Below are positions 42,218-53,888 of a stretch of DNA of 64,000 bases, one piece after another. Origin of the DNA: Methanosarcina sp. MTP4 (GTDB taxonomy: Archaea > Halobacteriota > Methanosarcinia > Methanosarcinales > Methanosarcinaceae); assembly GCF_000970045.1 (NCBI RefSeq), contig NZ_CP009505.1, positions 310,001 through 374,000 on the forward strand, given 5' to 3'. Position 1 is the stretch's first letter. The number at the start of each line of letters is the position of its first letter. The notes under the pieces were generated by a model. The model saw nothing but the letters and a program-made list of their open reading frames with translations, had not been told where the DNA came from and made no database searches. Made by a program: the position numbers and the translations under genes.

Positions 42218-42290
42218 TAGTCCTGAGCGGATTCGAACCGCTGTCCCGGGCTCCAAAGGCCCGAAGGATTGACCACTACCCTACAGGACT
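42218..42290 (-). tRNA. tRNA-Gln (UUG)
   Basis: Folds as a full cloverleaf on the minus strand: acceptor AGTCCTG/CAGGACT, anticodon stem CGGGC/GCCCG with loop CTTTGGA (anticodon TTG) and T-loop GGTTCGAATCC. CCA is not encoded. It sits just before the tandem RNA array, reading in the opposite direction. Confidence 0.95.
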
Positions 42291-42499
42291 GCGCATGAAG
42301 GCTTTTAGCTATACCTTATTTATGGTACTTAATTTTTGTGCCACTAAAGGTATCTTTTGGAAGTCCGTGTTTCAGGTTGAAAATACGTGTCCTGTCCAAT
42401 TCCATACAGGTTTCGAAACTTTTTCAGGGAAAAACTTTTTTGTGCGATTAAAAATTTTCAATCAATTAATTTAAAATAATTTCCAATATAATTGTGTAA

Positions 42500-42655
42500 T
42501 TGGGACTGGGAGAGAATAAGGGAGAAATCAGACACAAAATGAAATGCCTGAGGACTCTGATCCTGCTTCGTATCATTATGCTTGGGGGAGCATATCTTCG
42601 GAGCGGCTGTATTGGGGGATATAGTGAAAAGGTGTGGCGTTCTCGGGCTTCTTCT
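42500..42655 (+). ncRNA. Tandem structured RNA, copy 1
   Basis: Predicted start about 30 nt after TTTAAAATAA (42470). P1 GCCTGAGGAC (42546-42555) pairs with GTTCTCGGGC (42639-42648). Hairpin P3 TATGCT/AGCATA with loop TGGGGG is at 42577-42594, and P4 CTGTAT/ATATAG with loop TGGGGG at 42607-42624. A CU-rich tail follows. P1, P3 and P4 differ from copy 2 by paired changes. Function unknown. Confidence 0.7.
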
Positions 42656-43085
42656 TCCTCTGCTTTTTTACTTCTCTTGCTATGCTTTTTTGTGTGATTG
42701 TGCTTTTTTATTGTGTGCCTTTTTTGCGTGATTGTGCGTTTTTATGTTTTTTTTACTGTGTTTTTATCTTTTTTTTGCTCCGTCTTCTTTTGAAAAGGGC
42801 TTTCTTTGGGGTATGTTTTTTGACATGTCGATAAAATTCAGTTTTCCCGGGGGATTAAGTAGAGGGAAAGTTTAGGTGGCTGTAGGAAACCTGAAAGCCG
42901 AAGAATCTACTGCTTCCCTGATTCCTCCAGTTCCGTAGCCCCTCTATATCCAGGATATCTGGTTGAAAATAACTCTCCTGTCCAATTCTGTGCAGGGCTT
43001 GAAAGTTTTTCAGGGGAGAAGTTTTTTTTGCGATTAAAAATTTTCAATGAATTAATTTAAAATAATTTCTGGTATAATTGTATGA

Positions 43086-43257
43086 TTGGGAAATGGTAAG
43101 TGAACCGGGGAAATTAACAGGGGAAATAAACCGGTTGAAAGAAATGCCCGGAAATCATCGATCCTTATCCGGATCCGTGCTCTAGGGAAGCACATTTTCG
43201 GAGGGACTGTAGTGGGGGCTACAGTAACAAGGATCCGAAATTTCCGGGCTTTTTCTT
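43086..43257 (+). ncRNA. Tandem structured RNA, copy 2
   Basis: TTTAAAATAA at 43056 lies 30 nt before the conserved TTGGGAAATGG. P1 GCCCGGAAAT (43146-43155) with ATTTCCGGGC (43240-43249) is perfect. P2 GATCCTT (43160-43166) pairs with AAGGATC (43229-43235). P3 GTGCT/AGCAC spans 43177-43193 and P4 CTGTAG/CTACAG 43207-43224 with loop TGGGGG. A run of five U follows P1. The clearest fold of the six. Confidence 0.75.
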
Positions 43258-43629
43258 ACGCTGCGAATCTTTTCTTTTTTTCGATGTTTTCTGCTCTGCT
43301 TTTTTGATTTTCTTTTGTTATCCTGCTTTTCCGGCCTGAATTATCTGGAAATGAGGCCATTTTCTGTTTCTCTTTACTTATGCTCTCCAGGGTGCTTGAG
43401 ATATTCGATTTCACGATATGATTTTACGTGCTTCAGAGGAGGGGTTTCTAATATAAGGAGATTCTTTTCCCCTTTCGAATCTGTTTTTATTGTACTGTAT
43501 TTCTGGTTGAAATTAACTCTCCTGTCCAATTCTATGCAGGGCTTGAAAGTTTTTCAGGGGAGAACTTTTTTTTGTGATTAAAAATTTTCAATGAATTAAT
43601 TTAAAATAATTTCTGGTATAATTGTATGA

Positions 43630-43801
43630 TTGGGAAATGGTACGTGAACCGGGGAAATTAACAGGGGAAATAAACCGGTTGAAAGAAATGCCTGGAAATC
43701 GCCGATTCTGGTCCGGATCCGTGCTTAAGGGAAGCACATTTTCGGAGGAATTGCAGTGGGGGCTGCAGTAACAAGGATCAGGAATTTCCGGGCTTCTTCT
43801 G
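43630..43801 (+). ncRNA. Tandem structured RNA, copy 3
   Basis: Begins TTGGGAAATGG. P1 GCCTGGAAAT (43690-43699) with ATTTCCGGGC (43784-43793). P2 GATTCT with AGGATC. P3 GTGCT/AGCAC at 43721-43737. P4 TTGCAG/CTGCAG at 43751-43768, where U-A of copy 2 is replaced by C-G, a compensatory change. Confidence 0.75.
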
Positions 43802-44074
43802 ACACTGCGAATCTTTCCTTTTTTTGATGTTTTTTTCTCTGCTTTTTTGATTTTCTTTTGTTATCCTGCTTTTCAGGTCTGAATTCTCTGGAAATGAGGT
43901 AATTTCTCGTTTGTTTCTGTTCGTTCTGTTTTTATTGCGTGGTGTTTCTGATTAAAAATAAGTTCCATGTCCAATTCTATGCAGGCTTCAAAAGTTTTTC
44001 AGGGGAGAAGTTTTTTGTACAATTGAAAATTTCCAACGAATTAATTTAAAATAATTTCCGGTATAATTGTATGA

Positions 44075-44244
44075 TTGGGAAATGGTAAGTGAAATGGGAA
44101 CACGAATAAGGGAAAAAACTTATTGAAATGAACACCCGGAAATTACTGGTCCTGCTTCGGACCCGTGCTTAAGGGGAGCACATCTTCGGAGCGCCTGTAG
44201 TCGAGGATACAGTAAAAAAGATCAGGGGTTTCCGGGTTTCTTAT
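44075..44244 (+). ncRNA. Tandem structured RNA, copy 4
   Basis: Begins TTGGGAAATGG. P1 ACCCGGAAAT (44134-44143) with GTTTCCGGGT (44228-44237): the closing G-C of other copies is A-U here. P3 GTGCT/AGCAC at 44165-44181, P4 CTGTA/TACAG at 44194-44212. P2 is weaker in this copy. Confidence 0.7.
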
Positions 44245-44582
44245 TGCTCTCATTTTCCTCCGTCTTTTTATTTTTTTCATTTTGTTTGCCTGTTTCCGGT
44301 TGTGTTTTTTCCTGCAGGTTGTTCGGCTCTTATTTTCTGCGTGTTTACGGTCTCTGCTTTTTTACGGTTTAATTTATCAACTTCTTTCATCCTTTGCCTT
44401 CGATCTTGTATCCTGTTTCTTTGAAAAGGAGGGGGTTTTCCGGAAGTTGTCTATCTGATTGAAAATATGCACCCTGTACAATTCTATGCAGGTTTAGAAA
44501 CTTTTTCAGGGATATTATTTTTTATGAGATTAAAAATTTTCAACGAATTAATTTAAAATAATTTAGATGATTATTGTATACT

Positions 44583-44745
44583 GGATATGGGAAGTGAAAA
44601 GAAAAAGACATGATGATTGTGGAAGAAATGCCTGGGGTCGCTTAATCCTGCTCCTTATTCCACTCTTGAGGGAGGGTGGATTTCCGGAGCTGCTGTATGA
44701 GGGGATAAAGCAGAAAGGATGAGGCGTTCTCGGGCATCTTCTTTC
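44583..44745 (+). ncRNA. Tandem structured RNA, copy 5 (diverged)
   Basis: P1 GCCTGGGG (44630-44637) with TTCTCGGGC (44727-44735), partly G-U. P2 ATCCT/AGGAT. P3 is CCACTC/GGGTGG (44660-44679), a different sequence with the stem kept. P4 is CTGCT/AGCAG (44690-44713). The start region has diverged (TATGGGAAG), so activity is less sure. Confidence 0.6.
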
Positions 44746-44959
44746 TATGTACATCTCTTCTTTTTTATTTTTTCTCTGCTTTCCTTTTCTGCTTTTACTT
44801 TTATGCTCCTGGTTTTCTGATTTACTTTTTTGAAAAATATATCCTTTTTTCGACATTAGTTTCTATGCAGAGTTCGAAATATTTGGAGCAAAGATATTTT
44901 TTGTGGCGTTAAAAGTTTTCAACGAATTAATTTAAAATAATTTATGAGATAATTCTCAA

Positions 44960-45117
44960 TTGGGAAATGGGAAGAAAATTGGGGAGAAACTGAGAAACAG
45001 AAAGAAATACTTGGGGGTGGTGGTCCTGTTCCGGATCCGTATGCTTGGGGGAGCATATATTCGAAACGGCTGTATTGGGGAATGCAGTAAAAGGATCTTC
45101 ATCCTCGGGCTTCTTCT
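44960..45117 (+). ncRNA. Tandem structured RNA, copy 6
   Basis: Begins TTGGGAAATGG. P1 CTTGGGGGTG (45010-45019) with CATCCTCGGG (45100-45109), sequence different from copy 2 but fully paired allowing G-U. P2 GGTCCT/AGGATC. P3 TATGCT/AGCATA at 45040-45057, P4 CTGTAT/ATGCAG at 45070-45087, loops TGGGGG and TGGGGA. CU-rich tail. Confidence 0.7.
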
Positions 45118-45191
45118 TGCACTGCTTTTTTACTTAATTTCTCAAGTTTTTATTATGACTCCCCTATTTTTTACTGGGTTCCTCTATTTTT

Positions 45192-45443
45192 TTACTGTGA
45201 TTCTTTTCTTTGCTTTTTCGTTTTCCTACTTTGGGCCATCACCTCGAAAGTGGTCATAAAGGGGCGCTTGATTGGAAGGGCAATATTTTCATTTTCAATA
45301 TAAAGTTCAACGGCTTCTTTCAGGTTTGTAACTGCTTCTTCGATTGTTTCTCCCCGGCTCGTTACGTCCAGTTCCAGGCAGAGCGACTCGTAAGATTCCT
45401 CTTTTTTGTTCACTATTGCAGTTAGTTTGAAAGTTTCTTTCAT
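45192..45443 (-). CDS. HicB-like antitoxin-type protein
   Basis: An 83-residue protein with the short HicB fold: LTAIVNKKEESYESLCLELDVTS, then GETIEEAVTNLKEAVELYIE. It lacks a DNA-binding helix-turn-helix at its C-terminus, which is basic instead. No HicA mRNA-interferase gene is adjacent on either side, so it is an orphan. It converges on the RNA array. Confidence 0.75.
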   Translation of the reverse strand: MKETFKLTAIVNKKEESYESLCLELDVTSRGETIEEAVTNLKEAVELYIENENIALPIKRPFMTTFEVMAQSRKTKKQRKESQ

Positions 45444-45619
45444 GTTTCCAGATAGGGTTGGCGGCTATGTTAAATATTTCGCAGTTTTTTTGCAGAGTTT
45501 TTGCAGTTTTTTTGCAGGCCCGGGCTTTCCGGGCTAATATTTATAAAAGTACTTTTATATTGATTATTGTTTGGAAACACTTACTTAAGGAAGCTATCAG
45601 GAAGCGGAGACAAAATCTC

Positions 45620-46732
45620 ATGGTTGAAAAAATGACCTCCAGGGAGCGGTTTATCAATGCTCTCGAAAGAAAAGAAGTAGACCGTGTCCCTTACGGTTAC
45701 CTCTGGTTCGGCGCCGGGCATGCGGTGCTGGAGCGGATGGGCGTAAGCCTCAAAGATGTGTATTATTCGGCAGAAGGAATTGCCCGGGCACAAATCCTTG
45801 CCCGGGAGATGTACCACCACGACAACGTGATGTCCCCCTGGGGCTGCCTCCTTGTGGAAGCGGAGGCGCTCGGGACGAAGGTGAACATCAAGGAAAACGG
45901 GTACCCTACCGTGGCTGAGTACGTCCTGAAATCCGCAGGAGAATATGAAAAAATCAATCCGGATAATATCAAGCGGTCCGAACGGGTAAAGACCGTAGCC
46001 GGGTCAATCGAAATCCTCAAGAAAGAAATCGGGGACGAGGTTTTTATTACCGGGGCAACACTGGCTCCCCTTATGCTTGCTTCCCAGGTCCTGGGCGGGA
46101 GCAGGCTCTGCATTGACATGATGAAAGATCCCGAAGCTTTCCATGCCCTGCTGGAAAAACTTATGGAATGCTGCATCCTTTTTGCCGACTCCATGCTCGA
46201 AGCCGGAGCTGACGGAATCTTTGTCGAAAATGGGGAGAGCACCGGCGACCTCTTCAGCCCGCAGATGGCAGAAGAGTTCATGCTGCCCTACACAAAGAAA
46301 CTTTACGACCATATCAAGGAAAAAGGCGGGTACGTAATCTCCCACAATTGCGCAGCCCTTGCCTTCCACGACCTGGAAATGAAACTTGAGCCCCATGCCC
46401 TGAACTTTGCCTTCGGGGACGTCAGGCTGCTCGGAAAAAAGTACGGGGTCGAATGCATGAAGCTCCACAACCACAATAACATCGGTTGTGGCCCAAGGCA
46501 CTGTTTCAAGGAGTTAAAAACTTTCTCCGATGCCGGCATCTGCCTTATGGGAAACATCATCCCGGACGCCCCCCTGGTCGGAGGCAGGGCTGAGATCGAG
46601 CATGAGGTGAAGTGCTGCCTTGAGGCTGCCCCCGAAAAAGGTTTCATCCTTTCCACAGGCTGTGAGATTCCCCTGAACACGCCGCTTGAGAAAATGGAAA
46701 TGCTCTGGGATGCGATCAAGTCCAGATTCTGA
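45620..46732 (+). CDS. UroD-fold corrinoid methyltransferase (MtaA/MtbA-like)
   Basis: Started at ATG 45620 (370 residues), where SRERFINALERKEVDRVP, the family's usual N-terminus, begins shortly after. It has a zinc motif with H-x-C in ISHNCAA and a C-terminal Cys in LSTGCEIPL. Compared with MtaA it is longer and diverged. It may transfer methyl groups between a corrinoid protein and CoM or another acceptor. No corrinoid protein gene is adjacent, and the methyl donor is unknown. Confidence 0.78.
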   Translation: MVEKMTSRERFINALERKEVDRVPYGYLWFGAGHAVLERMGVSLKDVYYSAEGIARAQILAREMYHHDNVMSPWGCLLVEAEALGTKVNIKENGYPTVAEYVLKSAGEYEKINPDNIKRSERVKTVAGSIEILKKEIGDEVFITGATLAPLMLASQVLGGSRLCIDMMKDPEAFHALLEKLMECCILFADSMLEAGADGIFVENGESTGDLFSPQMAEEFMLPYTKKLYDHIKEKGGYVISHNCAALAFHDLEMKLEPHALNFAFGDVRLLGKKYGVECMKLHNHNNIGCGPRHCFKELKTFSDAGICLMGNIIPDAPLVGGRAEIEHEVKCCLEAAPEKGFILSTGCEIPLNTPLEKMEMLWDAIKSRF

Positions 46733-52691: not shown

Positions 52692-52868
52692 AAGGTAGTT
52701 GAATTGCTTCAACAAAATATTGAAGTCAACCACTCGCCAATAAATTGACGGGCATGTAATGTGCCCTGGTTGACCAGATCCCCGATTAGGAGCTTTGGAA
52801 AATCGGGAAACGATAGGAACGAATTTCATAGTTACCCTGAAATGCCGCCTCAGTTTCAGGCTCTAAGG
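52692..52868 (+). ncRNA. Candidate omega-RNA region upstream of iscB-like gene
   Basis: Three consecutive hairpins: GGGCA/TGCCC (52750-52766), CCCGATT/AATCGGG (52781-52807) and CCTGAAA/TTTCAGG (52836-52860). IscB nucleases use a structured omega-RNA made from DNA just upstream of the gene, so position and fold fit. No covariation evidence is available from one copy. It may be inactive, given the truncated protein. Confidence 0.45.
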
Positions 52869-53888
52869 ATGCCGGTTAAACAGTCCTGGGAGGTAGGGAC
52901 AGTGCTTGCATCATACAAACCGTTCCATATCAGATCGAGAGGAAGCCGGAAGACAAGGTACAGGCCAGCAAGGTTCAATAACCGGGGAAATTCAAGGAGA
53001 GAAGGAAGGTTAGCTCCTTCCATAAAAAGCAAACTCGAATCTCATTTCAGGGAAAAACGGTTTGTGGAATCCCTGCTTCTGGTAACGAAGTGGAAGGTCG
53101 AACTTGCTTCCTTTGATATCCACAAAATCAAAAACCCGGAAGTTTCCGGGACAGGGTATCAGGAAGGGGACCTAAAAGGTTTCTACAATGTCAAGGCTTA
53201 CGTTTTGCACAGGGACGGGTACACCTGCCAGCATTGCAGGGGAAAGTCAAAGGATTCCCGGCTACATTGCCATCACATCGTTTTCAGGTCAAAGCAGGGG
53301 TCAGATGCTCCGGAAAACCTGATTACGCTTTGTGAAACCTGTCACATTGCCCTTCATGCTGGGGAATTTGAGCTTTCAGGGAGAAGGTCAAACACGAAAC
53401 ACGCTACAGAAGTTGGCATTGTCAAGTCCCAAATCAAGAAATCCGATTGGAGCTTTGAGGAAGTGTTCGGATACGAAACAAAGTTCCGGCGAGAACAGGT
53501 TTTGGGACTCGAAAAAATGCATTATTTTGATGCGCTTGCTATCTGTTGTGGGGATAAACAGAAAGTAGAACCGGATGATACGGTCTACTTCAAAAAACAT
53601 GTTCCTGCGGGAGATTATCAGCAAAGAAAAGGGAAACGGTCTGAGAAGAAAATACCTACAGGAAAGCTGTTTGGACTCAGGAAATTCGATCTTGTAAAAA
53701 CAGAAAAGGGAATTGGTATTGTCCGAGGCAAACGATCAAGCGGGTATTTTTCGATCTCAGATCTCTTTGGAAACAAAATTTCAGATAGTGTCAATATTAA
53801 GAAAAATTCAAAACGATTGAGGGCAAGGACAAGCACATTAATTCAAAAAATGGAACTTGCAGAGTGTACGCATTCCTCCCCTGTCTAA
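52869..53888 (+). CDS. IscB-like HNH/RuvC nuclease, N-terminally truncated
   Basis: Start taken at ATG 52869 (339 residues), since the earlier open frame overlaps the hairpins. It has an Arg-rich bridge helix (SRKTRYRPARFNNRG), RuvC-II Glu (WKVELASFDIHKIKNPE), an HNH domain (YTCQHC, LHCHHIVFRSKQGSD, ENLITLCETCH) and RuvC-III (KMHYFDALAICCG). The PLMP segment and RuvC-I Asp (usually in IDPGS) expected in full IscB proteins are missing, and I find no remnant in other frames. HNH may still nick DNA, but the RuvC site cannot be complete. It is either a relic or an unusual short form. Confidence 0.75.
   Translation: MPVKQSWEVGTVLASYKPFHIRSRGSRKTRYRPARFNNRGNSRREGRLAPSIKSKLESHFREKRFVESLLLVTKWKVELASFDIHKIKNPEVSGTGYQEGDLKGFYNVKAYVLHRDGYTCQHCRGKSKDSRLHCHHIVFRSKQGSDAPENLITLCETCHIALHAGEFELSGRRSNTKHATEVGIVKSQIKKSDWSFEEVFGYETKFRREQVLGLEKMHYFDALAICCGDKQKVEPDDTVYFKKHVPAGDYQQRKGKRSEKKIPTGKLFGLRKFDLVKTEKGIGIVRGKRSSGYFSISDLFGNKISDSVNIKKNSKRLRARTSTLIQKMELAECTHSSPV

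What the first reader, a model, noticed from the sequence alone, without database searches (positions are those of the whole stretch)
42374..45117. Six tandem copies of an undescribed structured RNA with its own promoter
The sequence directly shows six same-strand units. In each, the same stems form although the sequence differs: P1 is GCCCGGAAAT/ATTTCCGGGC in copy 2, GCCTGAGGAC/GTTCTCGGGC in copy 1 and ACCCGG/CCGGGT in copy 4. P3 switches between GTGCT/AGCAC, TATGCT/AGCATA and CCACTC/GGGTGG. P4 switches between TGTAG/CTACA and TGCAG/CTGCA. Such paired changes are the signature of selected RNA structure. P3 and P4 loops are mostly G-rich (TGGGGG). Each copy has TTTAAAATAA about 30 nt before a conserved TTGGGAAATGG start and a CU/U-rich tail. 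A tandem family suggests dosage or diversified targets, such as small regulatory RNAs with G-rich loops pairing to C/U-rich mRNA. I recall no named family with this form.
Basis: partly seen in the sequence, partly recalled or inferred. Interest (0 to 1): 0.92.

Follow-up and report, generated by a model that had tools for sequence, protein, structure and literature searches.

The report
Multi-copy structured RNA family in Methanosarcina
The six repeats are six genes of a previously unlisted small-RNA family found in every Methanosarcina genome searched (up to 22 copies each); each RNA displays two identical G-rich loops, is driven by its own near-private promoter, and dispersed copies sit unusually often beside sensor-kinase genes, which suggests a signalling role that archaeal RNAs are not known to have.

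Summary
Six same-strand units (42372-45125) lie beside tRNA-Gln. Each carries a 19-nt promoter box that occurs nowhere else in the genome and a ~120-nt RNA: long P1/P2 stem, three-way junction, hairpins P3 and P4, each capped by a UGGGGG hexaloop. Rfam 15 has no match. A covariance model finds the family in 35/35 genomes of two Methanosarcina-type genera (1-22 copies) and 0/203 others of the class. Covariation is strong, also against a phylogeny-aware null. The tRNA-Gln array is conserved between species and its members keep separate identities. Dispersed copies are about 11-fold enriched near HisKA_2 sensor-kinase genes (13/30 loci within 3 kb, 1.1 expected). They are non-coding, non-mobile, stand-alone sRNA genes. 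Most likely they act in trans by presenting two identical G-rich loops to one ligand: a dimeric RNA-binding protein (sponge-like) or, less likely, C/U-rich mRNA. This resembles bacterial ANTAR twin-hexaloop RNAs but is not one: loop position 1 is U, and no ANTAR protein was found. Transcription and ligand are untested. No description was found in the open papers searched; the 2009 M. mazei transcriptome could not be read.

The parts
42464..42482 (+). promoter box, copy 1 (AATTAATTTAAAATAATTT)
42540..42658 (+). structured RNA body, copy 1; hexaloops UGGGGG at 42583-42588 and 42613-42618
43050..43068 (+). promoter box, copy 2
43140..43259 (+). structured RNA body, copy 2
43594..43612 (+). promoter box, copy 3
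43684..43803 (+). structured RNA body, copy 3 (about 91% identical to copy 2)
44039..44057 (+). promoter box, copy 4
44128..44247 (+). structured RNA body, copy 4 (P4 loop degenerate)
44546..44564 (+). promoter box, copy 5
44624..44745 (+). structured RNA body, copy 5 (divergent P3)
44925..44943 (+). promoter box, copy 6
45003..45120 (+). structured RNA body, copy 6
42218..42290 (-). tRNA-Gln (anticodon TTG), the conserved neighbour of the array (synteny marker, not part of the RNA)

Best explanation
Each unit is a stand-alone small-RNA gene of a multi-copy, Methanosarcina-specific family. Shown by sequence: a dedicated promoter box; a conserved fold (P1/P2 stem, three-way junction, hairpins P3 and P4); two hexaloops of the same sequence UGGGGG that are more conserved than the stems; a pyrimidine-rich tail with T-runs where transcription can end; orthologous copies kept at fixed places; enrichment beside HisKA_2 sensor kinases. 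Inferred: the RNAs act in trans. The drifting stems are a scaffold that holds two identical loops, and these bind one ligand twice, most likely a dimeric RNA-binding protein that is titrated, much as CsrB-type or ANTAR-sponge sRNAs titrate their proteins in bacteria. One regulator reading the shared box would switch the set on together. Subtypes with different leaders and stems would tune affinity or timing, and the kinase linkage points to a signal-transduction output.
For: Family, fold and covariation. Private promoter; in eight other genomes 45 of 51 boxes with at most one mismatch precede a copy (counted by eye). Loops 81-99% conserved with G4 in 70/72 and 69/72, paired columns 78% on average. 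HisKA_2 linkage: 13/30 loci within 3 kb, 1.1 expected, p<=5e-5, significant in each of three genomes. Orthologous subtypes. Mixed orientation to neighbours, so not a leader of one gene. Non-coding.
Against: No RNA-seq, northern or binding data. No candidate RNA-binding protein: ANTAR not found (no positive control), and the receiver-domain proteins read carry no recognised RNA-binding part. The window's own array is not beside a HisKA_2 gene. No other twin-UGGGGG leader was recognised as a cis target. The kinase null ignores intergenic placement and joint duplication of sRNA and kinase.
Confidence: 0.42

Rival explanations
1. Trans-acting base-pairing sRNAs: the G-rich hexaloops, or the variable 5' leader, pair with C/U-rich mRNA sites, as loops of M. 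mazei sRNA154 do with their targets.
For: The loops are conserved and exposed; loops of the known archaeal sRNA154 pair with mRNAs (PMC5867862). The leaders differ between subtypes and are kept between orthologues.
Against: CCCCC and TCCCC are not enriched at 97 gene starts (low power). The same loop in up to 22 RNAs is an odd way to diversify targets.
Confidence: 0.3
2. Housekeeping or scaffold RNA that works in an RNP (6S-like, or a ribosome- or polymerase-binding RNA), with copy number serving dosage.
For: Present in all 35 genomes, highly structured, many copies.
Against: Copy number varies from 1 to 22, subtypes are kept apart, and the kinase linkage is unexplained.
Confidence: 0.12
3. 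Cis-acting leader elements (riboswitch- or attenuator-like) of downstream genes.
For: The next gene downstream is on the same strand in roughly two thirds of the loci.
Against: About one third have an opposing downstream gene. Tandem units each have their own promoter. Downstream genes are unrelated to one another.
Confidence: 0.07
4. Short mRNA or dual-function RNA for a small protein.
For: Some known M. mazei sRNAs are translated (PMC11456600); copy 3 has a 49-codon frame.
Against: Frames differ in length (2-49 codons) and sequence between copies; indels and compensatory changes break frames while the fold stays.
Confidence: 0.04
5. Mobile or repetitive element rather than a gene family.
For: Many copies; recent duplicates (copies 2 and 3 about 91% identical).
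Against: Synteny of many loci is conserved across species; no transposase linked to the unit; each copy has its own promoter; covariation lies inside the unit.
Confidence: 0.02

Closest known systems
ANTAR-target twin-hexaloop RNAs and their sponge sRNAs (EutV system; PMC3369931)
   Same: Two neighbouring hairpins with hexaloops; G at loop position 4 conserved; link to histidine kinases (EutW, from memory a HisKA_2 kinase); small RNAs can act as sponges
   Different: Loop position 1 is U (A in ANTAR targets, and A-to-U lowers EutV activity); hairpins branch from a three-way junction under a long stem; no ANTAR protein found in these archaea
CsrB/RsmZ-type sponge sRNAs
   Same: Identical G-rich loops repeated in one RNA; tied to two-component signalling
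   Different: CsrA reads GGA in loops; here the A next to the G run is a stem base. CsrA is, to my knowledge, bacterial; it was not searched for
Cyanobacterial Yfr2 sRNA family (PMC6778093)
   Same: Lineage-wide, several copies per genome (up to nine), conserved unpaired motif on a divergent scaffold
   Different: Different fold and motif; Yfr2 genes are at unconserved loci, here many loci are conserved and one is a tandem array
M. mazei sRNA154 (PMC3177094, PMC5867862, PMC11456600)
   Same: About 130-nt intergenic RNA of Methanosarcina with two functional loops
   Different: NrpR-controlled, single gene, carries a conserved 20-codon leaderless ORF; none of this is true of the present family
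M. mazei sRNA162/sRNA171 (PMC3510493)
   Same: Methanosarcina-only homologous sRNAs with compensatory changes
   Different: 191 nt, three separate stem-loops with a 39-nt linker, beside ArsR-type genes

Membership tests
ANTAR-target RNA | two adjacent hairpins with hexanucleotide loops | tested here: met
   P3 and P4 hexaloops in most of 72 copies
ANTAR-target RNA | A at loop position 1 | tested here: not met
   Position 1 is U/C in 69 of 69 (P3, of those with a letter) and 66 of 72 (P4); A matters for EutV
ANTAR-target RNA | G at loop position 4 | tested here: met
   G in 70/72 (P3) and 69/72 (P4)
ANTAR-target RNA | ANTAR-domain protein in the same genome | tested here: not met
   PF03861: no match over cut-off in 112 genomes; no control genome rang, so sensitivity was not shown
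M. mazei sRNA154 | NrpR operator GGTA-N6-TACC in the promoter | tested here: not met
   none within 190 nt upstream of any of the 72 copies
M. mazei sRNA154 | conserved 20-codon leaderless ORF near the 5' end | tested here: not met
   frames not conserved
M. mazei sRNA162/171 | three separate stem-loops with a 39-nt single-stranded linker, 191 nt | tested here: not met
   nested three-way junction instead
CsrB/RsmZ | GGA in hairpin loops and a CsrA homologue | not tested
   loop letters seen (GGA not within the loop); CsrA not searched
any Rfam 15 family | match over the gathering score | tested here: not met
   with permissive limits only chance-level hits
trans-acting sRNA gene | own promoter, own transcript | tested here: inconclusive
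   promoter box shown; transcription not testable with these tools

The most novel reading that the evidence does not exclude
The family is the RNA half of an unrecognised archaeal two-component output: HisKA_2 sensor kinases control an unknown dimeric RNA-binding protein that reads twin UGGGGG hexaloops, and the many sRNA genes are its co-regulated sponges. This would be a parallel, independently built counterpart of the bacterial HisKA_2/ANTAR/twin-hexaloop circuit.
Probability: 0.13. Interest if true: 0.93.

Novelty: new variant of a known kind. Interest (0 to 1): 0.76.

Why it matters
Methanosarcina has dozens of HisKA_2 sensor kinases (17-44 in the three genomes counted) whose outputs are, to my knowledge, mostly unknown, and only a few archaeal sRNAs have a known function. 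A genus-wide sRNA family with up to 22 members, a near-private promoter, twin identical loops and physical linkage to those kinases gives a direct handle on both problems in strains with working genetics (M. acetivorans, M. mazei). It also adds a large structured-RNA family to Archaea, where few lineage-specific ones are described.

Tried and rejected
RNAalifold on the unrefined 41-sequence alignment gave a poor consensus, because hairpins of different length were misaligned; fixed by building a model from the long-type copies. A first R-scape-like test reported no significant pairs, because the one-set correction over ~6,500 pairs is severe and paralogue clades give the null heavy tails; with 125 sequences and the two-set test 4 pairs pass alone and the aggregate is about 20 s.d. 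above simulation. ANTAR protein: none. Response regulators with an RNA-binding output: none recognised. C-rich sites at gene starts: none. Twin-UGGGGG leaders outside the family: none recognised (by eye). Mobile-element and coding readings rejected. Literature searches found no description; the two most relevant papers, Jager 2009 and Prasse 2017, are not held. The whole genome was not available as a file, so target prediction was limited to stretches.

Full report
WHAT IS THERE. The window lies in a 4.21-Mb single-contig genome. Between a divergent tRNA-Gln(TTG) at 42218-42290 and a uroporphyrinogen-decarboxylase/MtaA-like ORF at 45458-46732 (the M. acetivorans-type orthologue matches Pfam URO-D) lie six same-strand units with spacing 586, 544, 445, 507 and 379 nt. 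Each has (i) an upstream region with an invariant 19-nt box AATTAATTTAAAATAATTT; (ii) about 20 nt further on, a start-like TTGGGAAATGG block; (iii) a 38-60-nt variable leader; (iv) a 118-122-nt structured body; (v) a CUUCUUCUU tail running into T-rich sequence. The box occurs six times in the genome with up to one mismatch, all six at the copies, none on the other strand, and the reversed control pattern is absent.

STRUCTURE. The body folds into P1 (10 bp) continued by P2 (5 bp), then a three-way junction with P3 (lower and upper segment) and P4. Window copies fold 2.7-5.8 s.d. better than dinucleotide shuffles. On 72 copies read from stretches of 13 genomes, P3 and P4 are both capped by a hexaloop, UGGGGG in 40 and 41 of 72. 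The loop letters are mostly over 90% conserved, against a mean of 78% for paired columns. So the stems drift by compensatory change while two identical loops are held.

COVARIATION. On 125 distinct sequences 91.7% of cells are paired, 35 of 37 pairs show changes on both sides, and 439 cells carry such changes against 147 +/- 17 in shuffles and at most 135 in slid controls. Because that alignment is fitted to the structure, I also simulated columns independently along the tree (an R-scape-like null, own script). The mean APC-corrected G score of the proposed pairs is 26.8, against 0.05 +/- 1.17 simulated (maximum 4.1 in 300). On a MAFFT alignment made from sequence alone it is 21.7 against 0.04 +/- 1.15. 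Four pairs are individually significant in the two-set test and no non-proposed pair is significant. With only 72 sequences and the one-set correction, no single pair was significant: the support is aggregate.

DISTRIBUTION. A covariance model from 14 copies finds the family in 35 of 35 genomes of two genera, g1 (the window's) and g13 (which includes a 5,751,492-bp genome, the size I recall for M. acetivorans C2A), with 1-22 copies per genome. None was found in the other 203 genomes of the class. All 23 records found by pattern in a named collection are Methanosarcina, Methanosarcinaceae or one unnamed euryarchaeal MAG that is the same contig as a g1 genome by length. Rfam 15 has no match.

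GENE FAMILY HISTORY. The tRNA-Gln array is conserved: tRNA-Gln(TTG) stands next to the copies in nine further array loci. In a tree of 72 copies, array positions group by position across species: A1 of four species 99/98, A4-type 98/91, and in g1 A1 99/91 and A5 100/100. Dispersed copies join particular array subtypes. Many dispersed loci keep the same neighbours in several species, for example between two MASE3 kinases, beside a rhodanese/MBL protein, or beside LysE/ABC genes. This argues against a mobile element and against pure dosage.

PROMOTER. In eight g13 genomes I counted 51 boxes with at most one mismatch (counted by eye). 45 precede a model-detected copy, two precede a visibly decayed copy, three precede a second transcript family (aligned), and one is unassigned. 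The upstream element TTTTTTGNTT..AAACAATTTTTGAT is shared as well. A promoter module this specific suggests a dedicated regulator; that is inference.

KINASE LINKAGE. Neighbours of dispersed copies are rich in PAS/MEDS/MASE3-HisKA_2 sensor kinases. In three complete genomes 13 of 30 copy loci lie within 3 kb of a HisKA_2 domain, against 1.1 expected under random rotation (p<=5e-5). Per genome: 3/8 (p 0.002), 7/13 (p 2e-5), 3/9 (p 0.002). Caveats: orthologous loci recur between genomes, joint duplication is possible, and the null ignores that sRNAs sit in intergenic DNA. The tRNA-Gln array is itself not next to a HisKA_2 gene.

MECHANISM. Stand-alone genes acting in trans are favoured by the private promoters, the tandem units and the mixed orientation to neighbours. 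ORFs are not conserved. Two identical, near-invariant loops on a drifting scaffold suggest one ligand bound twice. The bacterial precedent is the ANTAR twin-hexaloop RNA (A1 and G4; PMC3369931) and its sponges, whose kinases are, from memory, often HisKA_2. Membership fails: loop position 1 is U, and no ANTAR protein was found (without a positive control). The receiver proteins I read are mostly receiver-only or carry unrelated parts. So I put the protein-sponge reading at about 0.42 and base pairing at about 0.30. CCCCC was absent from 97 gene starts, which weakly disfavours pairing at start sites. Confidence that this is a real structured sRNA gene family is far higher, about 0.95.

NOVELTY. 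I found no description of this family in the open papers searched or in Rfam. Individual copies may be among the 242 sRNA candidates of M. mazei (Jager 2009), which I could not read. The family as such, its fold, its promoter and its kinase linkage appear new; the kind, a multi-copy trans-acting sRNA family, is known.

Noticed in passing
window 52725-53888 (+): HEARO (OMEGA-type) RNA (Rfam RF02033, 112 bits) overlapping the start of a 375-aa ORF with RRXRR and HNH Pfam matches: an IscB/IsrB-like element whose N-terminal part looks shortened, just after a tRNA-Arg.
   Followed up: partly
L135:1900-2240 (-), L136:1723-2063 (-), L137:1583-1923 (-): A second transcript family shares the same promoter box in two g13 genomes (G077, G085); downstream sequence about 75% identical over ~340 columns, a different RNA or a long 5' leader.
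   Followed up: partly
L134:1905 (-), L135:2744 (-), L103:3954-4130 (+): Decayed family copies behind intact promoter boxes, i.e. birth and death of copies.
   Followed up: no
window 45192-45443 (-): Small ORF (83 aa, MKETFKLTAIVNKKEESYESLCLELDVTS...) that looks HicB-like, convergent with the last copy; similar short ORFs follow the array in L012, L098 and L109. Not searched against Pfam.
   Followed up: no
L101:3740-3805 and other g13 copies (-): Many g13 copies carry an imperfect palindrome TTGTTT-N2-AAACAA just upstream of the promoter box, a possible operator; it is weak or absent in the window's own copies.
   Followed up: no
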